Position numbers and translations under genes: made by a program. From NCBI GenBank assembly GCA_029559475.1, contig JAKQBN010000066.1, positions 1 to 38,437 on the forward strand: a stretch of DNA of 38,437 nt, given 5' to 3'. Position 1 is the first letter of the stretch, and every line of letters begins with the position of its first letter. Under the pieces are notes generated by a model. It saw only the letters and a list, made by a program, of their open reading frames with translations, did not search any database and was not told the DNA's origin. Below, piece after piece: positions 7,315 through 20,878 of this stretch. Source of the DNA: a bacterium. Its GTDB lineage: Bacteria > UBA4055.

Positions 7315-8409
7315 TCAATACCTTCGATACTCCGCAAAAGCCTGATCTATCCAGTAGGCTTTTATCTCGTCTAATCCGCCCTGATAAATCTTCTGACCTT
7401 TAGGATTGCCGTACTTTTCAGCCAGTTCCGAGATATCAATATCTGAAATATCTTTACTGAAACAGCTGTGAAGCGCGCTGAAAGGATTATCGGACAATGC
7501 TTTTTTCATAAGATTAGAGAAATTATCCTTTTTGATATTTCCATGATGAATTGTAAGAAAATTGCCTTTACCTGTATATAGATCAAAGTTCTGATCTGCA
7601 ACAAGCCAGATGTCATCCATAAAACGGGGTTTATAATTCTTCCGCTCTTCATTTGATAAAGATAAAGCCAGTTTTACCAGCTCAGCCTCTGTGTTCGCTC
7701 TTATTCCAGACAAAAAACTATCAGCATCGGGAATAGTCTCGCCGTCAACGCAGTATTCAGCCAAAGTTGAGCTTATTTTTTCAACATCGGAATATTCCGT
7801 TCTTATCTTTTCGTACCTTCTGCCCCTTGAAGTCGCATTATAACGCGCAAAAGAGATCATTATGTTTTCATGGTCGATGTCAGGAGCTATAACATTTTTG
7901 ATAAGCTCAGGTATTTCATTAATACTTTCTTTGGTTATAAAAACGTTGAACGAAAGATCTATACCGGCAGAGCGGATCCTTTCAAGTGCCAGCTTAAGAT
8001 CCTCAAAAGCACCTTTCCGGTTCACAGCCTTATCGTGAACTGCACCAATACCGTGAAAAGAAAGCACCATAAATTTATACTCAAGCTCCTTAATGCAATC
8101 CAATACATCTTTCCAGTCTGGCCTGACAGCCAACGCAATACCCGAAGTCGGCATATCATAAGGCATCATCCCGTATTTCATAAAAAGTTTCATCTGCGTG
8201 CCAGTCTCTGGATGCGCCAGCTCCTCGAACATAGGAAATGGATCCAAAGCATATTCGGGCTTATCTGAAAGATATTCTTTCATCTTAAACAAAATTTCTT
8301 CAAGATCAATAAGCGGCATATTTTTAAAAGGCTTACCCTGCGCCCAGCAGTGCTCACAGCTCGTCAAACAGCCTGATGAATTTATCTGAAGGAAAATATT
8401 TTTCGCCAT
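7315..8409 (-). CDS. Radical SAM protein of unknown function
   Basis: 364 residues. The cluster motif C14-x3-C18-x2-C21 (SSGCLTSCEHCWAQGK) is close to the N-terminus and is followed by a TIM-barrel-like region (FMVLSFHGIGAVHDKAVNRKG, then a long helical part). No C-terminal SPASM or twitch cluster motif is visible; the rest has only scattered Cys (YCVDG, HSCFS). MAKNIFLQIN as the N-terminal strand, directly before the cluster, is normal for the superfamily. GAGG precedes the ATG. It stands alone, with no peptide substrate or partner gene nearby, so the reaction cannot be guessed. It is divergent from the nuclease-helicase gene. Confidence 0.85.
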   Translation of the reverse strand: MAKNIFLQINSSGCLTSCEHCWAQGKPFKNMPLIDLEEILFKMKEYLSDKPEYALDPFPMFEELAHPETGTQMKLFMKYGMMPYDMPTSGIALAVRPDWKDVLDCIKELEYKFMVLSFHGIGAVHDKAVNRKGAFEDLKLALERIRSAGIDLSFNVFITKESINEIPELIKNVIAPDIDHENIMISFARYNATSRGRRYEKIRTEYSDVEKISSTLAEYCVDGETIPDADSFLSGIRANTEAELVKLALSLSNEERKNYKPRFMDDIWLVADQNFDLYTGKGNFLTIHHGNIKKDNFSNLMKKALSDNPFSALHSCFSKDISDIDISELAEKYGNPKGQKIYQGGLDEIKAYWIDQAFAEYRRY

Positions 8410-8485
8410 CGTTCAATCCTCATAATTAGGCGGACAATATATGAATAATGCGGGAATATTACAAAAAGAAATAAGGAATTTTATT

Positions 8486-8513
8486 TGGAATAACAACCGA
8501 GATAGAGTAAATT
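8486..8513 (+). promoter_or_regulatory. Possible divergent member of promoter module B
   Basis: TGGAAT (8486-8491) and TAAATT (8508-8513) stand 16 bp apart, with CCGAGATA between them, about 40 bp before the nuclease-helicase ATG. This resembles module B upstream of the Bro-N, DUF and kinase 1 genes, but the spacing is one base shorter and the inverted repeat is not kept. It may be chance in an AT-rich region. Confidence 0.25.
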
Positions 8514-8554
8514 AGAATTACTTTGAAATATCAGATAAAATAAATGGAAATTGC

Positions 8555-10531
8555 ATGTTAAACTATTATTTTAAAGACAGTATCCAATCATTTATAAATA
8601 AAAGCACTGAAGAAATTATAGGTCAAATAAGCCTTTCGAATCAGTTCGGTTCTATACTAACTCAAAATAAATCTTGGGAATCGCAGATTCCAATTCTGAA
8701 AAAGGCTTTGCAACCTTTCGAAGGAGTTATATTTTTTGAATTTTCTATTCCAAGAATGGGAAAACGAGTTGATGTAATTTTGATTATTGAAAATGTCGTT
8801 TTCGTTATTGAATTTAAAGTTGGTGAACATAAATATTTGAGTTTTGAAGTTGATCAAGTCTGGGATTATGCTTTAGATTTGAAAAATTTTCATGAACCGA
8901 GCCACAACATTGTTTTAGCTCCGATTTTAGTTTGTACAGAAGCTAGAGAATCTTTTATTGAAGTCATTACAACTTCGCATAATGATAATTTAATTCTGCC
9001 TGTGAAAGCAAATAAAGAAACCCTTCAACAAGCTATTATTAATATATTGAATTTCAACAAAGAAAACGGTCAAATCAATGCCGAATCTTTCGCAAAAGGA
9101 AGATATTCGCCAACACCAACAATCATTGAAGCTGCTATTTCACTTTACAATAGTCACACCGTTGATGCAATTACGAGAAATGATGCTGAAGCTAAAAATC
9201 TTACTGTAACTACAACAGCGATCTCGGATATAATCCATTCAGCAAAAAACAAACGTAAGAAAATTATTTGTTTTGTAACGGGAGTACCTGGCGCAGGAAA
9301 AACACTTGTTGGCCTAAAAGTGGCAACAACTCATCTTGAAGAGCAAAATGGGCACGCAAGCGTTTATTTGTCGGGGAATGCTCCACTTGTTGCTATTCTT
9401 CAAGAAGCTTTAACAAGGAACAAAGTAAAAAACGAAAAGATATTAGGGAAAAAAATTACAAAAGGCGTAGCCAAAGCAGGAGTAAAAGCGTTTATTCAAA
9501 TCATTCATCATTATAGAGATGCTTATTTAGTCGATCCTAGCGCTCCGTATGATCATGTCGCAATTTTTGATGAAGCTCAAAGAGCTTGGAACAAAGAGCA
9601 GACTGTTAGTTTCATGAAACGAAAAAAAGGAAAACACGACTTTGATTATTCTGAACCGGAATTTCTTATTTCATGTTTAGACAGGCATCAGGATTGGGCT
9701 GTCATTGTTTGTCTTGTAGGTGGTGGGCAAGAAATCAACACTGGCGAGGCTGGAATTTCTGAATGGCTTGAAGCGATAAGAACAACTTTTCAAAAATGGG
9801 AAGTATTTATTTCTCCAAACCTAACAGATTCTGAATATAACGCTGTTAATGCAATTGAAGAATTAAAACATATTACAAATGTGAATTTAAATACTGATTT
9901 ACATCTAGCTGTTTCAATGCGCTCATTTAGAGCTGAAAACCTTTCACTATTTGTAAAAAACCTGTTAGATATAAATATTCAACAGGCAACCGATACATTA
10001 AGAAATATCTCAGAAAAATACCCAATTGTTCTCACAAGAGATCTTTCAAAAGCTAAAAAATGGTTGAAAGAAAAAGCTAGAGGGAGTGAAAGATATGGTT
10101 TAATAGTATCTTCACAAGCTCAACGACTTAAACCTTTTGCGATCGATGTTAAAACACCGATGGATCCTGTTCATTGGTTCCTTAATGAAAAAGACGATGT
10201 TCGGTCTTCATATTATTTAGAGGATGTGGCTACAGAATTTCATGTTCAAGGACTTGAATTAGATTGGTCTTGCGTAATGTGGGATGGAGATTTGAGATTT
10301 TCAGATGAAGGATGGAAAACATTTTCTTTTGTCGGAAATAAATGGCAGAACATTCATAAAGAAGAAAGAAAAAAATATTTAATCAATGCCTATAGAGTTT
10401 TGTTAACAAGATCAAGGCAAGGAATGGTTATTGTTGTTCCAGAAGGTGATCCTGAAGATCATACACGAAAAGCCGAATATTACGACTCAACGTTTCAATA
10501 TTTAAAAAGTATTGGAATTGAAATTTTATAG
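8555..10531 (+). CDS. PD-(D/E)XK nuclease fused to DUF2075 (SF1-type) helicase
   Basis: 658 residues. The N-terminal part has a nuclease-like core: D73 in RMGKRVDVILII and E86-F-K88 in FVIEFKVGE, followed by the conserved DQVWDYALDLKNFH. The helicase part has Walker A GVPGAGKT (243-250), Walker B FDEAQ (339-342), SMRSFRAENLS, HVQGLELDWSCVMWDGD and the motif VI-like YRVLLTRSRQGM. DUF2075 helicases also form the C-terminal half of long Schlafen proteins. A restriction or defence-like role fits the architecture and the accessory setting but is not shown. The coding region looks more AT-rich in codon choice than its neighbours (GAA, AAT, TTT), which suggests transfer. No partner methylase is present. 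Confidence 0.85.
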   Translation: MLNYYFKDSIQSFINKSTEEIIGQISLSNQFGSILTQNKSWESQIPILKKALQPFEGVIFFEFSIPRMGKRVDVILIIENVVFVIEFKVGEHKYLSFEVDQVWDYALDLKNFHEPSHNIVLAPILVCTEARESFIEVITTSHNDNLILPVKANKETLQQAIINILNFNKENGQINAESFAKGRYSPTPTIIEAAISLYNSHTVDAITRNDAEAKNLTVTTTAISDIIHSAKNKRKKIICFVTGVPGAGKTLVGLKVATTHLEEQNGHASVYLSGNAPLVAILQEALTRNKVKNEKILGKKITKGVAKAGVKAFIQIIHHYRDAYLVDPSAPYDHVAIFDEAQRAWNKEQTVSFMKRKKGKHDFDYSEPEFLISCLDRHQDWAVIVCLVGGGQEINTGEAGISEWLEAIRTTFQKWEVFISPNLTDSEYNAVNAIEELKHITNVNLNTDLHLAVSMRSFRAENLSLFVKNLLDINIQQATDTLRNISEKYPIVLTRDLSKAKKWLKEKARGSERYGLIVSSQAQRLKPFAIDVKTPMDPVHWFLNEKDDVRSSYYLEDVATEFHVQGLELDWSCVMWDGDLRFSDEGWKTFSFVGNKWQNIHKEERKKYLINAYRVLLTRSRQGMVIVVPEGDPEDHTRKAEYYDSTFQYLKSIGIEIL

Positions 10532-10546
10532 AATTCTAGGAGAAAA

Positions 10547-10713
10547 ATGACACTCACTCCAGCCTATATATACAAAAAAGAAGTTGACTGGTCGGTTTTC
10601 CGGGACGGTTTTATATCCCCGTGTCGCTTCAAGTTCTGTTTTATGAAAAGATCGGTCAGTATTTGCAAAAGGTCGGGGGTAGGCAAAGTGTCCGGGGCAT
10701 AAGGAGCTTCTGA
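10547..10713 (+). pseudogene. 5' remnant of a gene with a frameshift
   Basis: A well-placed start (GGAG, four A, ATG at 10547) follows the helicase gene by 15 bp. The frame encodes MTLTPAYIYKKEVDWSVFRD and then ends at 10702 after 51 codons. At about 10608-10613 a change of frame restores sensible sequence, IPVSLQVLFYEKIGQYLQK, up to the TGA at 10711. EVDWS followed by DGF-IPVSLQ looks like one continuous protein start broken by a single-base indel. The remainder of the gene is missing and module A begins just downstream. GC content is higher than in the helicase gene. I cannot name the parent family. Confidence 0.55.
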
Positions 10714-10762
10714 GGTTGTAATAATCCCATAAAAAATATTGAAAATTAATAGATGAGTGTCA

Positions 10763-10790
10763 TTAGATGAACGTCATCCTTTTGTATATT
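10763..10790 (+). promoter_or_regulatory. Promoter/operator module A, copy 1 (before the Bro-N gene)
   Basis: TTAGAT (10763-10768), 16 bp, TATATT (10785-10790). The spacer carries the inverted repeat GATGA-ACG-TCATC (10766-10778). Upstream GATGAGTGTCA and an A/T tract (AAAAAATATTGAAAATTA) are shared with copies 2 and 3. Read as a promoter with an operator in the spacer; the identity of the sigma factor and the repressor is unknown. Confidence 0.65.
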
Positions 10791-10803
10791 GGGTAAAGTT
10801 AAG

Positions 10804-10832
10804 TGGAATATCTGAGGATATTTCGTTAAATT
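10804..10832 (+). promoter_or_regulatory. Promoter/operator module B, copy 1 (before the Bro-N gene)
   Basis: TGGAAT (10804-10809), 17 bp, TAAATT (10827-10832), with the near-perfect dyad AATATCT-GA-GGATATT in the spacer. The match to copy 2 continues through the leader up to the start codon, about 60 bp in all, so the whole leader was duplicated. It stands 14 bp after module A, giving the Bro-N gene two tandem control sites. Confidence 0.6.
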
Positions 10833-10858
10833 ATAGAGTAATGCGAAGGAGCAGAAAG

Positions 10859-11698
10859 ATGGAAGAAAAAAACAGCATGGCGATCTTTGATGATTTCAGG
10901 ATCAGAAGAGTATTCGATAAGGACAAGGACAAATGGTTTTTTTCCGTAGTCGATATTGTTGCAGCGCTGATCGAACAGCCGGATTTGCAGACAGCCCGGA
11001 AATATTGGAATAAGCTCAAGGAGCGTTTAAAAGCTGAAGGTAATGAAACGGTGACAAATTGTCACCAGTTGAAAATGCAGGCTCAAGATGGAAAGATGAG
11101 GCTGACCGATGTAGCAGATGTTGAAACTCTTTTGCGGTTAGTTCAATCTGTGCCTTCAAAGAAAGCTGAACCTATCAAACTATGGCTGGCAAAAGTGGGA
11201 TATGAAAGGATGCAGGAGATGGCCGATCCTGAACTTGCACTCAACAGGTCAAGGGAGTATTGGCAGAGCCACGGAAGAAGCGAAAAATGGATCCAGCAGA
11301 GAATGACAGGTCAGGAAACGAGGAATAAACTTACTGATTACTGGGATGGTCACGGAGTGAAAAAAGGCGATGAATTCGCTATGCTGACAAATATAATTCA
11401 TAAAGAGTGGTCGGGTCTCTCGGTTAAAGATCACAAAGATTTTAAAGGACTTGAAAGGCAGAATTTGAGAGATCACATGAGCGAGGCGGAGCTTATATTC
11501 ACTGCTTTGGCCGAACTTTCGACTAGACAGATCGCTGAAACAGAAAATTCTGAAGGTCTTGAGGAAAATAAAGATTCCGCGGTTAAGGGCGGTAGTATTG
11601 CAAAAGATGCAAGGAAAGCTTTAGAGGATAAAACCGGCAAATCGGTCATTACTGATCAGAATTTTCTGCCGGTCGGAAATAAGAAAAAGATAAAATAG
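10859..11698 (+). CDS. Bro-N domain protein (prophage antirepressor / DinD-like)
   Basis: 279 residues from the ATG at 10859, which has GGAG eight bases upstream; an open frame to 10757 would run through both promoter modules and is rejected. The N-terminus FRIRRVFDKDKDKWFFSVVDIVAALI matches the BRO/antirepressor domain that binds DNA in many phage and plasmid regulators. The centre has ADVETLLRLVQSVPSKKAEPIKLWLAKVGYERMQE, which is typical of the stand-alone chromosomal form. The C-terminal half (SREYWQSHGRSEKW, DYWDGHG, LTNIIHKEWSG) is the conserved helical part of that group, followed by a Lys-rich tail. There are no phage genes near. A regulator of the locus, possibly of its own modules A and B, is an attractive guess. 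Confidence 0.85.
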   Translation: MEEKNSMAIFDDFRIRRVFDKDKDKWFFSVVDIVAALIEQPDLQTARKYWNKLKERLKAEGNETVTNCHQLKMQAQDGKMRLTDVADVETLLRLVQSVPSKKAEPIKLWLAKVGYERMQEMADPELALNRSREYWQSHGRSEKWIQQRMTGQETRNKLTDYWDGHGVKKGDEFAMLTNIIHKEWSGLSVKDHKDFKGLERQNLRDHMSEAELIFTALAELSTRQIAETENSEGLEENKDSAVKGGSIAKDARKALEDKTGKSVITDQNFLPVGNKKKIK

Positions 11699-11736
11699 TA
11701 CCGCAAAAAATATCGAAAATTATTAGATGAGTGCCA

Positions 11737-11764
11737 TTAGATGACCATCATCCCTTTGTATATT
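11737..11764 (+). promoter_or_regulatory. Promoter/operator module A, copy 2 (before the ORF6N gene)
   Basis: TTAGAT (11737-11742), 16 bp, TATATT (11759-11764), with GATGA-CCA-TCATC (11740-11752) across the spacer. The upstream segment AAAAAATATCGAAAATTATT also parallels copy 1. The predicted transcript start lies about 20 bp before the ORF6N ATG. Confidence 0.65.
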
Positions 11765-11789
11765 GCAGGAAATTGACGGAGTAGTGCGT

Positions 11790-12683
11790 ATGTCGGATAA
11801 AGAAATAGAAAAATTAGATGAAGACCTGATCCGGGGTCGGATATATTCTATCAGAGGATTCCAGGTGATGCTGGATAGGGACTTGGCGGAATTGTATGGG
11901 GTTGAGACAAAGATACTTAATAAAGCAGTCAAACGAAACAGCGCAAGATTTCCTGAAAATTTTTGCTTTAAACTCACTCCGGATGAGTTAGAATCTTTAA
12001 GGTTCCATTTTGGAACCATAGAGAACGGTAGAGGGAGGCATAGCAAATATCTTCCTTATGTTTTTACGGAGCAGGGAGTAGCTATGTTGGCAGGGATATT
12101 AACGAGCGAGACAGCTGTAAGAGTCAGTATTTACATAATGAATGCGTTTGTGGCTATGCGCAAGTTTATACAGACGAACGGGCAGTTGTTTCAAAGAGTG
12201 GATAATCTGGAAATCAAGCTTATTGAAACAGATAAAAAAGTTGAGAAAATCCTCGGGGCAATGGAAAGCGGCGATCTGAAGCCGGTGCAGGGAATTTTCT
12301 TTGAAGGTCAGATATTCGACGCTTATAATTTTGTTTCAGAACTGTTCAGAGGCGCGGAAAAGTCCATCCTTATCATAGATAATTACATTGACGATTCGGT
12401 TCTGGTTCATCTGACAAAGGTAAAATCGGGTGTATCAGTCAGAATATTAACAAGATATGTGACGGATCAATTCAAACTGGATGTTAAGAAATTCGAGGCC
12501 CAGTACTTTCCGGTCGAGGTAAAAGTGTTCCCGCACTCGCACGACAGATTCATTATAATTGACGGGCGCGATGTTTATCATGTGGGCGCATCTTTAAAAG
12601 ATCTCGGCAAAAAGTGGGTCGGATTCTCCAAGTTCGGCAAAAGCGCCATAGACATTTTAGGCCGGCTGGAAGAGTTGGACTAA
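11790..12683 (+). CDS. ORF6N domain protein
   Basis: 297 residues from the ATG at 11790, chosen for the GGAG eight bases upstream. The N-terminal ORF6N domain (GRIYSIRGFQVMLDRDLAELYGV, RNSARFPENFCFKLT, YVFTEQGVAMLAGIL) is a DNA-binding domain of the KilA-N/antirepressor group. A short coiled coil (IETDKKVEKILGAM) joins it to a C-terminal domain with IFDAYNFVSELFRGAEKSIL, IDNYIDDSVL and HSHDRFIIIDGRDVYHVGAS, a layout related to phospholipase D-like or nuclease-like folds but with a single H-D block. Such proteins are common in the Bacteroidetes-type accessory genome. It is a second antirepressor-type protein in the same island, under module A. Confidence 0.85.
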   Translation: MSDKEIEKLDEDLIRGRIYSIRGFQVMLDRDLAELYGVETKILNKAVKRNSARFPENFCFKLTPDELESLRFHFGTIENGRGRHSKYLPYVFTEQGVAMLAGILTSETAVRVSIYIMNAFVAMRKFIQTNGQLFQRVDNLEIKLIETDKKVEKILGAMESGDLKPVQGIFFEGQIFDAYNFVSELFRGAEKSILIIDNYIDDSVLVHLTKVKSGVSVRILTRYVTDQFKLDVKKFEAQYFPVEVKVFPHSHDRFIIIDGRDVYHVGASLKDLGKKWVGFSKFGKSAIDILGRLEELD

Positions 12684-12685
12684 AG

Positions 12686-12714
12686 TGGAATATCCGAGGA
12701 TATTTCGTTAAATT
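12686..12714 (+). promoter_or_regulatory. Promoter/operator module B, copy 2
   Basis: TGGAAT (12686-12691), 17 bp, TAAATT (12709-12714). The spacer holds a perfect 7+2+7 dyad, AATATCC-GA-GGATATT (12689-12704). It begins right after the ORF6N stop and lies 27 bp before the next ATG. The leader to 12744 repeats that of copy 1. Confidence 0.65.
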
Positions 12715-12741
12715 ATAAAGTAATGAGAAAGAGCTTAAAGG

Positions 12742-13338
12742 ATGAAGATAAAACTTTTAATATTTGCGTGTCTGCTGGCTCTCGGATATTATTACTGGCA
12801 GAATGATCAGCCTTTAACGCATGAGGGGGAAGGTCAGATCGCGAAAGAACAGCCCGTTCAGAAAACTTCGAATGCGAAGCCTTTTTCGTTCGGGGACGGA
12901 TATCTGATAACTCCGCTCGCTGATTTCAGTATTACCGCGCGTGTGCTTTCCAAAGAAAGGTACCGGATGGATGAAGGCGTAAAGCTGGTCCCTGTCGATC
13001 TTGCTCTTGGCTGGGGGCCGATGTCGGATGATGCGGTTCTTTCAAAGCTGGAAATTTCGCAGAGGAACAGATGGTTCTACTGGAGATGCGATTCCTACCC
13101 TATTCCGAGAGATCAGATCGAGCATAATGCGGCGAATATGCACTTGATCCCGGGCGATGACGATATAGAAAAGAAGATCAAAGGCGTTAAGTCAGGCAGT
13201 CTGGTCAGGTTCTCGGGATATCTTGTCAGGGCAGACAGGCCGGACGGTTGGAAGTGGGAAAGTTCTCTTTCAAGAACAGACACAGGAGATCATTCCTGCG
13301 AGCTGGTTTTCGTTAAGATATTTGATGTAATAGAATAG
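12742..13338 (+). CDS. Membrane-anchored conserved protein of unknown function
   Basis: 198 residues. The N-terminus (MKIKLLIFACLLALGYYYWQ) is a signal anchor, and the rest would lie outside the inner membrane. Conserved-looking segments are LVPVDLALGWGPMSDDAVL, ISQRNRWFYWRC, NMHLIPGDDDI and WESSLSRTDTGDHSCEL. I recognise this as a recurring uncharacterised protein of many bacteria but know no function; two Cys (C115 and C184 region) might form a disulfide. The ribosome site AAAGG directly abuts the ATG and is weak. It lies under module B between the ORF6N and kinase genes, so it may belong to the same response. Confidence 0.75.
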   Translation: MKIKLLIFACLLALGYYYWQNDQPLTHEGEGQIAKEQPVQKTSNAKPFSFGDGYLITPLADFSITARVLSKERYRMDEGVKLVPVDLALGWGPMSDDAVLSKLEISQRNRWFYWRCDSYPIPRDQIEHNAANMHLIPGDDDIEKKIKGVKSGSLVRFSGYLVRADRPDGWKWESSLSRTDTGDHSCELVFVKIFDVIE

Positions 13339-13388
13339 AAAAATATTACTGATTATTTTTTCTGTTGAAGTATTTGACTTAAAACTGG

Positions 13389-13417
13389 TGGAATATCCGC
13401 ATATATTTAGTTAAATT
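13389..13417 (+). promoter_or_regulatory. Promoter/operator module B, copy 3 (before kinase 1)
   Basis: TGGAAT (13389-13394), 17 bp, TAAATT (13412-13417). The left half AATATCC is kept, the right half has changed to ATATATT. Some 40 bp of leader follow to the TTG start. This is the least conserved of the three but has the same spacing. Confidence 0.5.
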
Positions 13418-13458
13418 TAATATTCTGTGCGCGTAAGTTTAAATTAATCAGGTGCGGA

Positions 13459-16400
13459 TTGATCCAGAAAAACACGGTAATAGATTCAGTGTTCATAGTG
13501 CAGAAAAGGCTGGGTACGGGAGCTCAGAGCAGTGTTTATCATGTGAAAACATCTTCGGGCAATTTCGACAGAGCGCTTAAACTGATAGAAGTAACAGAAG
13601 GATCGAAGGAAAAATTCAGTTCCGTGATACAGTCGGTCAAGGATGAATTTTCAATAATAAAATCACTCCGCCACAAAAATATAATCAGGGTATATGACTT
13701 CGGGTACGACAAAAAGCTGGACAAATATTATTATACAATGGATTACCTTGAAGGATATGACCTGAGAAAACATGTCGAACATTATCCTGAAATATCGCGG
13801 TTTCCCGATCTTGTTTATCAGATACTGGACGGCCTGAATTATCTTCATGCCAGCAATATTATCCATTTTGATATAAAACCGGAAAATATTTTTGTTGTGG
13901 ATGATAACGGCAACCCTCTCGTAAAAATCCTCGATTTCGGACTTTCAGAGATAAAAATGCACAATAAACAGGATCAGATAATCAAAGGCACTCTTTCATA
14001 TATAGCACCCGAATTCTTCCTCGACACATCAAAAATTTCCGCTAAGATCGACCTGTATTCTCTTGGAATTACACTTATACATGTCAATAAGGGTATAAAA
14101 GGCAAGAATTCATCGGATGTTGCCGGCAGCGGGATCATAAAAGCGGTCAACGAAGAATATAAAAACAATATGGATCTGCTGAACGAGTTCAGGGATAAAA
14201 AAATTAAATCTTTCATATCCCAGCTCGTTGAAAAAGATCCGGGCACAAGAATATCTTCGGCTGTCGAAGCTGTAATATCTTTGAACAATATCTTCGGTCT
14301 GAATTATAAGATCCCTTCAGTGCACCAGGTTGCATCATTTCTGAACAATCCAAAATTTATCTTGAGAGATGAGATATACCGGGAGCTGAAGCATGAATAC
14401 GATTCAGCCGAATCGGAAAAAGAAGGAAGGACCGTTGTTATATCCGGAGCATCGGGATCAGGCAAGACAAAAATACTTAAACACCTGTTCTTTCAATGCA
14501 GCCTCGATCTGAAAAAAGTGCTTTATGTCTATCTGGAAGACAATACGAGCGTTGATTTTTTCATAGGAAGTCTTCTTTTAAGAAAAATTTACAATCTGTA
14601 CAGGGATGAGATCGATATTGAAAGCGAATACGGAAAGATAAATTCAGAACTGGATGATATTATAAAGAAGGATCAGGACATAACATATATTTTTGACGAT
14701 GTGATAAGTTTTATCGTCAGGTGCTCCCGTTCGGGAAATTTCAGGATTGCTCTTCTTATGGACAATTATGAAAATTACGACAGGGTGTCTTTTAAATTCG
14801 TAAACAGGCTGATCGATCAGAACAGACACAGCGGCGATATTTTCCTGACGGTATCCGTCGCAACGGATAAAATGGACAACAGGGTCGCTCAGAGCTATAA
14901 AATGATCGAGTATGATCCCGAGATAAAAAAGATATTATTACCTCCTCTTTCATTTTCTGAAACTGAAAAAGCTGTCGAACTGCTTCTGGGAAAGATCGGA
15001 AGCCTGCCCCCGGATTTTACAAGAAAAGTTTATGATTTCTCCGGCGGGAATTTTAGAAAGCTGATGGTGTATCTCGACGAATTTTTCAGCGAAGGGGTTC
15101 TCAATTATGTTTCCGGTATCCTCATGTTCAGAGACAATGAAAAATTCAATATGATCTTAAGTTCAAAAAGCGGAAGATCGGAGGAGAAACTGATCGGGAG
15201 TTTAGATAAGAACGGGCTTTTTGTTCTAAGACTGCTGTGTATTACATTCAATAAACTGACCTTTGATGAAATACTCGGGGCTGTTCATTTCGGCGCAGGC
15301 GATCTGAGACGCATTCTGAAAAAACTCGCGGAAATTGAGCTGATAAGCGGTTATGAAGATCTTTACAAAGCTATCAGAAGCGAAGTTAAGAGTTTTGTGT
15401 TCTCTAAAAGTTCTCCGGAGGAACTTTCATCATTATATGAATACGTCGCCGGGCTTAAGCACCATGACAGGTTCAGTCATTATGCATCCAGGCTGATCCG
15501 TTCAATTACTTCAAAGAAGACCTTATATGATCTGGATGCGGTAGGTGATTTTATCGAAAAAATGATCAGATACGACAGCAATGACAATCTTTATTACCTT
15601 CTTTCGAACAGCATAGTATTCGCAGAGAACCGTGAGTTAAGGTTCAGGCTGGAGATAAATTATGCTTATTATCTGAAAAACAAAAAGCCCGAAGAAGCTG
15701 CAAAAGCATTAATTAACCTTGACAGGAAATTCGAAAGCGAGGAAAGCGATATAAGGAACAGGATCAGCTTTATCAGACTTAAACTCAGGATGCTCGATCC
15801 GGATATCTGCGATTATGACGTAAAGGGATTTTTATTAAAAGCGTTCCCGGTGATGGAAAAAGGAATGGACCTTCCTGATATGTTCGGGGAGCTGTATGAG
15901 TTCATTAAAAAGCTTCTGATGACCGGAAGATATTTTGAACACGGTGTTTTTATTACAGAAATGCTTGAAAGGAAATTATCGGGTGAGGAGAACGTTCCAT
16001 TCGAATACCCGAACCTTATCCATACTTTAAAATTTACTTACGGAGTTATAGCCTGGAAGGAAGAATATGAAAAAAAGCTCTCGGAATATATAGGTCTGCA
16101 TGTTGAGAATAAACTTTTCAGCAGCAGTTATTTTCACCTTCTAAGATCAATAGCGGTACTGGCTGAGAAAAATCTTATAAAAGGGGATCTCGGCAAAATC
16201 CTTATCGACGGACTGAAAGAAGCTTACAGGAGCAGAAATATCGATATCATGTTCAGGATGTTTTCCACTTTAGCCACATACAATTATTATAAGGGTAAAT
16301 ACGAGGAGTCGCTCTACTGGGATCAGAAACGTGTCGATATGAAGCAGAAATTAAGGATAGAGCTTACGACGGATGATATAAGCGATATAGCCGTGGTTAA

Positions 16401-17250
16401 GGCGAATCTCTATTATCCTATAGGTGAAGTAATATCTCTTATCCAGGAAACTCGAAGGCAGGCAAAAGAAAGGAATGAGCTTTCGCTTTACATAGAGAAC
16501 ATTACGAACGAATTCGTTCTTCTGCACAGGAAAGGGGATTTCAGATCGGCGAAAACAGCTATAAGGAAAGTATATCTGTATTTCAGAACGCTTCCTGACG
16601 GCGAGACTTTGAGAAATTATGAAAGAGTGGCTAAATATTTCCCCGAAGTATTCTCAAAAGAGGAATCGATCGCAGATGCCCGTGATCTTTTGGAAAACAG
16701 GTCGGTCTCTCCTGATGTGTTCAATAATATGCTGGCTATGCTGGATAAATTTTATGAATACAATATCTGCTACAGATGGTCGCCCGGCAGAACTGATGAG
16801 ATATTGGACGGAACCGTGCATTTAGAAACGCCAATGATGCTTCTTCATTATATCAAAGTGCACAAAAGGCTGCCGAAAAAGGACAGGGTGTTTAAAAACA
16901 TTGAACCGAGATTTCTGAATTCCGAACTGACCGGTGATCATCTGGCTTTTCTGGTTACGAAATTCATGATGACGAAAAATGAAAAACTCATCGATCCTAT
17001 TTTTGAATTCTCCCGGAAACTGCATATTTCAGGATATGTTATGCTGAACGTTTATACGATCATACCGTTTATGGAATTCGCGCTCATGGTTGAAGTTCCC
17101 GGACATAAGATAAAGCAGTTCATCGAATTTTATGAAGAGATCAGGCAGTATATCTATAACAATCTGGATGAGACCCAGGTCGGATTATTTGAATCCACCT
17201 ATTTTTTCAGGCGCGGTAAAAAAATAATAGAATATTTCGACAGAAAATAG
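13459..17250 (+). CDS. Giant Ser/Thr kinase-ATPase-TPR signalling protein (kinase 1)
   Basis: 1263 residues, cytoplasmic. Residues 10-280 are a Hanks-type kinase: G-loop LGTGAQSSV, K41, helix C E63, HFDIKPEN (136-143, catalytic D138), DFG (159-161) and GTLSYIAPE (177-185). The usual HRD Arg is Phe, so this is a non-RD kinase that may not need activation-loop phosphorylation. A STAND/AAA-like ATPase follows with Walker A GASGSGKT (330-337) and Walker B-like ALLMDNYE near 430. The C-terminal 600 residues are helical and TPR-like (YNYYKGKYEESLYWDQK). The end LFESTYFFRRGKKIIEY is identical in kinase 2. It starts at TTG with AGGTG upstream. The general layout resembles PknK-like kinase-ATPase regulators, without their output domain. 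The signal and targets are unknown. Confidence 0.9.
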   Translation: MIQKNTVIDSVFIVQKRLGTGAQSSVYHVKTSSGNFDRALKLIEVTEGSKEKFSSVIQSVKDEFSIIKSLRHKNIIRVYDFGYDKKLDKYYYTMDYLEGYDLRKHVEHYPEISRFPDLVYQILDGLNYLHASNIIHFDIKPENIFVVDDNGNPLVKILDFGLSEIKMHNKQDQIIKGTLSYIAPEFFLDTSKISAKIDLYSLGITLIHVNKGIKGKNSSDVAGSGIIKAVNEEYKNNMDLLNEFRDKKIKSFISQLVEKDPGTRISSAVEAVISLNNIFGLNYKIPSVHQVASFLNNPKFILRDEIYRELKHEYDSAESEKEGRTVVISGASGSGKTKILKHLFFQCSLDLKKVLYVYLEDNTSVDFFIGSLLLRKIYNLYRDEIDIESEYGKINSELDDIIKKDQDITYIFDDVISFIVRCSRSGNFRIALLMDNYENYDRVSFKFVNRLIDQNRHSGDIFLTVSVATDKMDNRVAQSYKMIEYDPEIKKILLPPLSFSETEKAVELLLGKIGSLPPDFTRKVYDFSGGNFRKLMVYLDEFFSEGVLNYVSGILMFRDNEKFNMILSSKSGRSEEKLIGSLDKNGLFVLRLLCITFNKLTFDEILGAVHFGAGDLRRILKKLAEIELISGYEDLYKAIRSEVKSFVFSKSSPEELSSLYEYVAGLKHHDRFSHYASRLIRSITSKKTLYDLDAVGDFIEKMIRYDSNDNLYYLLSNSIVFAENRELRFRLEINYAYYLKNKKPEEAAKALINLDRKFESEESDIRNRISFIRLKLRMLDPDICDYDVKGFLLKAFPVMEKGMDLPDMFGELYEFIKKLLMTGRYFEHGVFITEMLERKLSGEENVPFEYPNLIHTLKFTYGVIAWKEEYEKKLSEYIGLHVENKLFSSSYFHLLRSIAVLAEKNLIKGDLGKILIDGLKEAYRSRNIDIMFRMFSTLATYNYYKGKYEESLYWDQKRVDMKQKLRIELTTDDISDIAVVKANLYYPIGEVISLIQETRRQAKERNELSLYIENITNEFVLLHRKGDFRSAKTAIRKVYLYFRTLPDGETLRNYERVAKYFPEVFSKEESIADARDLLENRSVSPDVFNNMLAMLDKFYEYNICYRWSPGRTDEILDGTVHLETPMMLLHYIKVHKRLPKKDRVFKNIEPRFLNSELTGDHLAFLVTKFMMTKNEKLIDPIFEFSRKLHISGYVMLNVYTIIPFMEFALMVEVPGHKIKQFIEFYEEIRQYIYNNLDETQVGLFESTYFFRRGKKIIEYFDRK

Positions 17251-17252
17251 GA

Positions 17253-17274
17253 AAGGGCGGAAAATTCCGCCCTT
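17253..17274. terminator. Bidirectional terminator hairpin between kinase 1 and the MerR gene
   Basis: Perfect stem AAGGGCGGAA (17253-17262) and TTCCGCCCTT (17265-17274) with a two-base loop, between two convergent genes. There is no long T run, but the stem is strong and lies 2 bp from either stop codon. Confidence 0.75.
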
Positions 17275-17276
17275 CT

Positions 17277-18086
17277 TCATTTGACAGGCACCTGGATCTC
17301 CGTCAGCCAGTCATTAGGATCCTCTTTATTCCAGCAGCCGTCAATGTACGACTCCCTCGGCTGACCGATGATCTCGAGTTTATTATCCTCTATCCACTTG
17401 AAAACAGCCGAATACGTCCTGCCGAAATTCTCGTACGGGCCTCTGTGATAAATGCAGGCCGCCCTTTTAAAGCCTTTCATTTCTTTATAGATAATACCGT
17501 CGGCGTCAGGCAGTTTTTTCACAACCGCCTCGACGATCTCGACATCAATGTCTTTATCCTTACATTCAGGATCGTGATAGATATTGAAGCAGTAGGCGGG
17601 TTCTCTGCATACAACCCCTTGTTTCCTCATTTTATCACCCATCTCAGGCGCCATCGTATAAAGGTAATTGAAGTCCGGTATGATCTTTCTGTAGGTCGCC
17701 GCGATGATATCCGGCAGTTGTTTGATCGTAACTTTTTCCATTTCCAGCTCCGTTTTTAATTCGCTTATCCATTTTTTTAATTGCGATACGCTGTTCTGTT
17801 CTCTGACAATACTGTTTTCTATACTTCTTTTTTTTATTTCGAGGATATCCATCAATTCTCCGGCATCCGGCCTGCCGGTCAGAACAGATGATATCTCCTC
17901 AAGCGAAAACCCCATTTCCTTCAAAGACCGTATCTCGCTGACGAGGGCGAGTTTTTCCGGTTTATAGTACCTGTATCCGTTCTCCCGGCTGATCAGGTCG
18001 GGCGTTACAAGTCCTATCTCGTCATAATACCGGAGCGTCTTTACCGTCGTTCTGCAGAGTTTTGAGAAATCGCCTATTTTCAGCAT
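17277..18086 (-). CDS. MerR family regulator with GyrI-like effector domain (BmrR type)
   Basis: 269 residues from the ATG at 18086, which has GGAG seven bases upstream; the longer open frame begins inside the promoter. Residues 1-70 are the winged helix-turn-helix (MLKIGDFSKLCRTTVKTLRYYDEIGLVTPDLI, NGYRYY). A coiled coil (residues 80-120) gives the dimer. The C-terminal domain (from about 125: DIIAATYRKIIPDFNY, AACIYHRGPYENFGRTY, ...WLTEIQVPVK) is the AraC-binding/GyrI-like fold that binds cationic small molecules. It would activate its own or a divergent promoter. The neighbour across the divergent region is an exported nuclease, not a transporter, so the target is unclear. Confidence 0.92.
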   Translation of the reverse strand: MLKIGDFSKLCRTTVKTLRYYDEIGLVTPDLISRENGYRYYKPEKLALVSEIRSLKEMGFSLEEISSVLTGRPDAGELMDILEIKKRSIENSIVREQNSVSQLKKWISELKTELEMEKVTIKQLPDIIAATYRKIIPDFNYLYTMAPEMGDKMRKQGVVCREPAYCFNIYHDPECKDKDIDVEIVEAVVKKLPDADGIIYKEMKGFKRAACIYHRGPYENFGRTYSAVFKWIEDNKLEIIGQPRESYIDGCWNKEDPNDWLTEIQVPVK

Positions 18087-18120
18087 ACCGCGTCTCCTTT
18101 TCCGTAAGCTTACACCGGTA

Positions 18121-18151
18121 AATATAAACATTCCTGCCGCGGGAGGGTCAA
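18121..18151 (-). promoter_or_regulatory. Predicted MerR-type promoter with 19-bp spacer
   Basis: On the minus strand TTGACC (18151-18146) and TATATT (18126-18121) are 19 bp apart, the long spacing that MerR proteins correct by DNA distortion. A palindrome GTAAGCTTAC stands just downstream at 18104-18113. The spacer itself shows only a weak dyad, so operator placement is uncertain. Confidence 0.5.
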
Positions 18152-20782: not shown

Positions 20783-20850
20783 ATAATTTAAACTCCTGAA
20801 AAAAAATCAAAAAAAAGTGAAAAAATTTTCAAAAAAATAGATGAGTGTCA

Positions 20851-20878
20851 TTAGATGACCGTCATCTTTTATTATATT
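20851..20878 (+). promoter_or_regulatory. Promoter/operator module A, copy 3 (before the PUR gene)
   Basis: TTAGAT (20851-20856), 16 bp, TATATT (20873-20878). The spacer holds the best inverted repeat of the three, GATGAC-C-GTCATC (20854-20866). GATGAGTGTCA lies directly upstream and a long A tract before that. The 5' leader to the ATG at 20928 is about 43 nt. The 120 bp between the glutamine synthetase gene and this site hold only the palindrome CTATCGATAG (20741-20750) and one copy of the dispersed 17-mer (20766-20782). Confidence 0.7.

What the first reader, a model, noticed from the sequence alone, without database searches (positions are those of the whole stretch)
10800..13417. Three copies of a second module B, two with a duplicated 60-bp leader
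Seen: TGGAAT, 17 bp, TAAATT at 10804, 12686 and 13389; the spacer holds AATATCC-GA-GGATATT (perfect at 12689-12704). Copies 1 and 2 also share the leader up to the start codon. They precede Bro-N, the membrane-anchored unknown and kinase 1. The Bro-N gene carries both modules in tandem, so it links the two gene sets. A weak fourth copy may precede the nuclease-helicase (8486).
Basis: seen in the sequence. Interest (0 to 1): 0.7.

Follow-up and report, generated by a model that had tools for sequence, protein, structure and literature searches.

The report
Ordinary promoter copied beside ORF6N genes
The three repeats are copies of this bacterium's everyday gene promoter with a small palindrome in the middle; they sit next to restless phage-type ORF6N genes, are not kept with the genes they precede in related bacteria, and so are a modest finding rather than a new control network.

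Summary
TGGAAT-17-TAAATT lies at 10804, 12686 and 13389; copies 1 and 2 match over 71 bp (86%). The "fourth copy" at 8486 has a 16-bp spacer and no dyad. The regulon reading fails. The hexamers are the genome's ordinary sigma-70-type promoter: de novo analysis of 120 upstream regions gives TTGAAT-17-TATATT. No other copy exists in the 2.28-Mb genome at up to 2 mismatches, and the dyad alone is near chance frequency. B is absent upstream of 4/4 membrane-gene orthologues, 6/6 kinase homologues and 6/7 Bro-N homologues, including the closest (80% identical). Instead B is tied to ORF6N (phage anti-repressor-like) genes: the three best foreign copies, one in a further assembly, and weaker ones in two more genomes lie just after an ORF6N stop or remnant, before different genes. 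Best explanation: an ordinary promoter with a possible operator in its spacer, sitting at ORF6N 3' ends and spread by ORF6N gene duplication and loss; A1-B1 before Bro-N fits the scar of a lost ORF6N gene. Arms are conserved between genera (9/9 against 3/8 other spacer positions, p=0.009), so operator function is possible but unproven. Module A, by contrast, is a convincing conserved operator.

The parts
10804..10832 (+). Module B copy 1: promoter TGGAAT-17-TAAATT with dyad AATATC-TGAG-GATATT, before the Bro-N gene
12686..12714 (+). Module B copy 2: perfect dyad AATATCC-GA-GGATATT, 2 nt after the ORF6N stop codon, before the membrane-anchored gene
13389..13417 (+). Module B copy 3: promoter with partial dyad, before kinase 1
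10801..10871 (+). Duplicated 71-bp promoter-leader segment, copy 1 (86% to copy 2)
12683..12753 (+). Duplicated 71-bp promoter-leader segment, copy 2
10720..10791 (+). Module A copy 1, joined to B1 with no gene between (9 nt)
11694..11765 (+). Module A copy 2 (86% to copy 1), between the Bro-N stop and the ORF6N start
10860..11698 (+). Bro-N domain gene; ATG 10860 is the likely start (AGGAG before it), downstream of B1
11763..12683 (+). ORF6N gene (phage anti-repressor-like), likely ATG start near 11791-11793; lies between A2 and B2
12742..13338 (+). Membrane-anchored protein of unknown function, downstream of B2
13459..17250 (+). Ser/Thr protein kinase with AAA/STAND-like ATPase region (kinase 1), downstream of B3
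8486..8513 (+). Claimed weak fourth copy: TGGAAT-16-TAAATT without a dyad, before the Schlafen-group-3 helicase gene; an ordinary promoter-like site, not module B

Best explanation
Module B is a copy of the clade's ordinary sigma-70-type promoter (local consensus TTGAAT-17-TATATT) with an imperfect palindrome in its spacer. It typically sits immediately downstream of ORF6N genes and points outward into whatever gene follows. Copies 1 and 2 most likely arose by duplication of an A-[ORF6N]-B segment; the ORF6N gene between A1 and B1 was then lost, leaving both promoters in tandem before Bro-N. Shown: match to the genome's own promoter consensus, the duplication, the link to ORF6N 3' ends in several genera, and the lack of conservation with orthologues of the downstream genes. 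Inferred: that it is transcribed, the order duplication-then-loss, and that the palindrome may bind a dimeric regulator competing with RNA polymerase.
For: EM on 120 upstream regions converges on TTGAAT/TATATT with 17-bp spacing in 74% of sites. B1-B3 score 12.3 against a shuffled 95th percentile of 10.1. B is found only here in the genome; near-identical copies in G005:C47, G009:C55, G009:C296 and one more assembly each follow an ORF6N gene, truncated gene or remnant, before Bro-N, a second Bro-N-domain gene or a sigma-factor gene. Weaker relatives lie right after ORF6N stops in G002:C202 and G008:C151. ORF6N genes are multi-copy, tandem and often internally deleted. A1/A2 and B1/B2 are equally diverged (62/72 and 61/71). 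Dyad arms are conserved 9/9 against 3/8 other spacer positions between genera.
Against: No transcription data. The statistics for the dyad are modest, and G005 and G009 share a genus. B3 has no detectable ORF6N remnant next to it and a poor dyad. The -35 element departs from consensus at position 2 (TGG for TTG). Most ORF6N genes have no B behind them. Whether ORF6N was lost from A1-B1 or inserted into A2-B2 is not resolved.
Confidence: 0.66

Rival explanations
1. B is the operator of a small dedicated regulon: a dimeric DNA-binding protein (for example the ORF6N or Bro-N product) binds AATATC-N4-GATATT in the spacer and represses all three promoters together.
For: Near-perfect dyad centred in the spacer; arms conserved between genera while the loop changes; genes behind B sites include several DNA-binding, antirepressor-type proteins: Bro-N, a second Bro-N-domain gene, RhuM.
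Against: No further sites in the genome; dyad count near background in 41 genomes; not conserved upstream of orthologues; copy 3 and the G002, G003 and G008 relatives have poor dyads; no regulator identified.
Confidence: 0.2
2. B is an end or recombination site of a mobile gene cassette (A-ORF6N-B), and the promoter resemblance is secondary.
For: A-ORF6N-B order, tandem ORF6N arrays, internal deletions that keep both ends; a short repeat AAAGTAATGTCGGAG occurs both before and after ORF6N genes in G002.
Against: A precedes many genes with no ORF6N (dprA, radC, DUF3276); most ORF6N genes lack B; no integrase or transposase was recognised among the window proteins examined; no exact match in 2.9 million viral contigs.
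Confidence: 0.08
3. B is a transcribed RNA leader element conserved at the RNA level.
For: Copies 1 and 2 share the leader to the start codon; the palindrome could fold if transcribed from an upstream promoter.
Against: The dyad lies upstream of the expected start of B transcripts; folding z-scores are weak (-2.0 and -1.2); no Rfam match.
Confidence: 0.04

Closest known systems
Bacterial sigma-70-type housekeeping promoter (-35/-10, 17-bp spacer)
   Same: Two hexamers 17 bp apart, matching the consensus derived here from the same genome; 27-41 nt from the -10 element to the start codon
   Different: -35 has G at position 2; a palindrome occupies the spacer
MerR-type promoters with a dyad between -35 and -10 (from general knowledge)
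   Same: Inverted repeat in the spacer
   Different: MerR promoters have 19-20 bp spacers; here 17 bp
Module A of the same window (GAGTGTCAYTAKWTGANNNTC dyad)
   Same: Dyad overlapping a promoter; also found beside ORF6N genes
   Different: Different sequence; A is dispersed and conserved with orthologues in four genomes, B is not

Membership tests
Sigma-70-type promoter of this clade | -35 and -10 hexamers matching the genome's own consensus at 17-bp spacing | tested here: met
   consensus TTGAAT-17-TATATT; B scores 12.3 against 10.1 for the shuffled 95th percentile
Sigma-70-type promoter of this clade | Transcription starts downstream of the -10 hexamer | not testable with these tools
   no expression data
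Operator of a conserved regulon | Site conserved upstream of orthologues in relatives | tested here: not met
   0/4 membrane gene, 0/6 kinase homologues, 1/7 Bro-N homologues and not the closest
Operator of a conserved regulon | Dyad enriched in the genome above background | tested here: not met
   3 sites in own genome, two of them B1 and B2; 0-4 per relative
Operator of a conserved regulon | Arms more conserved than the rest of the spacer | tested here: met
   9/9 against 3/8 (p 0.009) for copy 2; only two lineages compared
MerR-type regulated promoter | 19-20 bp spacer | tested here: not met
   spacer is 17 bp
Mobile cassette end | Same site at the boundary of every ORF6N unit | tested here: not met
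   most ORF6N 3' ends lack B

The most novel reading that the evidence does not exclude
ORF6N anti-repressor-like genes act as small promoter-carrying units: an inlet promoter with operator A drives the gene, an outlet promoter B behind it drives whichever host gene follows, so that gain and loss of ORF6N copies rewires neighbouring genes and leaves A-B scars such as the one before Bro-N.
Probability: 0.25. Interest if true: 0.5.

Novelty: new member of a known kind. Interest (0 to 1): 0.3.

Why it matters
It shows how promoters can be copied and left behind by turnover of phage-type regulator genes in an uncultivated clade (the nearest named relatives are Candidatus Delongbacteria / UBP11). 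It also corrects a tempting reading of a repeated promoter as a new regulon, and gives a computed promoter consensus for this genome against which such motifs can be judged.

Tried and rejected
RNA leader element: weak folding, no Rfam match. Viral origin of B: no exact match in viral contigs. Genome-wide B regulon: rejected. An ORF6N C-terminal scar (LGKVK) in the bases between A1 and B1: the same bases also align with ordinary A leaders, so undecided. B derived from the 5' end of a deleted ORF6N gene (shared GGAATAT and leader AAAGTAATG): alignment against 436 control leaders gave only borderline support, so not claimed. A simple E. coli-consensus promoter scan was uninformative. Papers: none found on this clade's promoters or on this ORF6N arrangement.

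Full report
Observation. The dyad AATATCC-GA-GGATATT is perfect in copy 2, has 6-bp arms in copy 1 and is partial in copy 3. Copies 1 and 2 match over 71 bases (61/71) from the end of the ORF6N stop codon to about ten bases inside the next gene, and module A is duplicated with the same divergence (62/72). The claimed fourth copy at 8486 has a 16-bp spacer and no dyad.

Is it more than chance? In the 2.28-Mb genome no other site is found with up to two mismatches, and one with three (before a RhuM-family gene, C37:43752); the reversed-pattern control gave none. The repetition is therefore real. The dyad alone is not remarkable: a random spacer of this composition holds a perfect 6-bp dyad in 3.7% and a 7-bp dyad in 0.9% of cases, and AATATC-N4-GATATT occurs 0-4 times in each of 41 genomes, with only three sites here, two of them B1 and B2.

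What the hexamers are. A two-block EM on 120 upstream regions of this genome, started from either the E. coli consensus or the B hexamers, converges on TTGAAT-17-TATATT, with 17-bp spacing in 74% and about 70% of regions holding a site; runs from random starts settled on lower-scoring motifs. Position by position, the -35 is close to TTG(A/C)(A/T)(T/A) and the -10 to TA(A/T)ATT (that table was made from sites chosen with the EM model, so it is descriptive). B is thus a good example of the ordinary promoter, with G in place of T at the second position.

Relatives. Near-identical copies occur in the same family: G005:C47, G009:C55 and G009:C296, all TGGAATATCTTCGGATATTTTATTAAATT, and in a further assembly labelled Paceibacterota from the same site as G009. 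In 84,980 species genomes the strict pattern matches only four contigs (records of the window's own genome may be left out there); 28 genomes outside the family have none at up to three mismatches. Each of these copies follows an ORF6N gene, an internally deleted ORF6N gene or a remnant, and stands before Bro-N, another Bro-N-domain gene, or (G009:C296) a sigma-factor gene. Two weaker relatives lie directly at ORF6N stops in G002:C202 and G008:C151, before other genes. The ORF6N proteins before these sites are only about 55-64% identical to the window's, where long enough to compare. A blind pattern search landing within 30 nt of ORF6N 3' ends three times out of three is far beyond chance, although the two genomes concerned share a genus.

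The membrane-gene orthologues in G005, G007, G010 and G012 have no B upstream. Five kinase homologues in relatives and the window's own kinase 2 have none. Of seven Bro-N homologues outside the window only the 45%-identical one in G005:C47 has B; the 80%-identical one in G007 does not. So B is tied to the ORF6N neighbourhood, not to the genes it precedes.

Most likely mechanism. B is an outward-facing promoter behind an ORF6N gene. In the window, A2-ORF6N-B2 lies exactly between the Bro-N stop and the membrane gene; A1-B1 before Bro-N looks like the same unit without the gene, consistent with loss of an ORF6N gene from a duplicated copy; insertion of ORF6N between an older A-B pair is the alternative. 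ORF6N genes in these genomes are multi-copy, tandem and frequently truncated, so such losses are expected. Whether the palindrome is an operator remains open: between this genome and G005 the nine arm positions inside the spacer are all conserved while three of eight others are (p 0.009 for copy 2, 0.03 for copy 1), but relatives in G002, G003 and G008 and copy 3 lack a good dyad.

Contrast with module A. The A dyad GAGTGTCAYTAKWTGANNNTC has 11 sites here, 3, 5 and 8 in three relatives, none in 37 others and none in controls at one mismatch. It precedes ORF6N genes, dprA-like genes in four genomes, DUF3276, radC and a PLD-nuclease gene.

Verdict. Confirmed observation, ordinary core (housekeeping promoter), interesting but modest context (promoter spread with ORF6N genes), weak case for a dedicated operator.

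Noticed in passing
10755-10775, 11729-11749, 20843-20863 (+) and 8 further sites in the genome: Module A is a strong, clade-specific dyad GAGTGTCAYTAKWTGANNNTC overlapping promoters: 11 sites in this genome, 16 in three relatives, none in 37 others. Downstream genes include dprA-like genes (four genomes), radC, DUF3276, a PLD-nuclease gene and ORF6N genes, which looks like a DNA-uptake or DNA-repair regulon.
   Followed up: partly
genome-wide, e.g. L115 (G002:C202), L119 (G008:C151): ORF6N genes and fragments occur up to 14 times per genome in family members, in tandem arrays with internally deleted copies; in G002 a 15-base repeat AAAGTAATGTCGGAG occurs both before and after the genes and could promote their duplication and loss.
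   Followed up: partly
7315-18131: Partial synteny with G005:C5 (moa genes, radical SAM gene, MerR/GyrI gene, kinase 2, DUF3276) suggests that the stretch between the radical SAM and MerR genes is a variable island: helicase, Bro-N, ORF6N here; other genes, a HigBA-like pair and ORF6N in G005.
   Followed up: partly
L174: A contig labelled Candidatus Paceibacterota (STD2_257) carries an ORF6N-B locus nearly identical to that of G009, a Delongbacteria genome from the same site; probably a misbinned contig, otherwise a transfer.
   Followed up: no
L010, L012: In two related genomes a B-like promoter without a good dyad precedes a uvrA-like gene.
   Followed up: no
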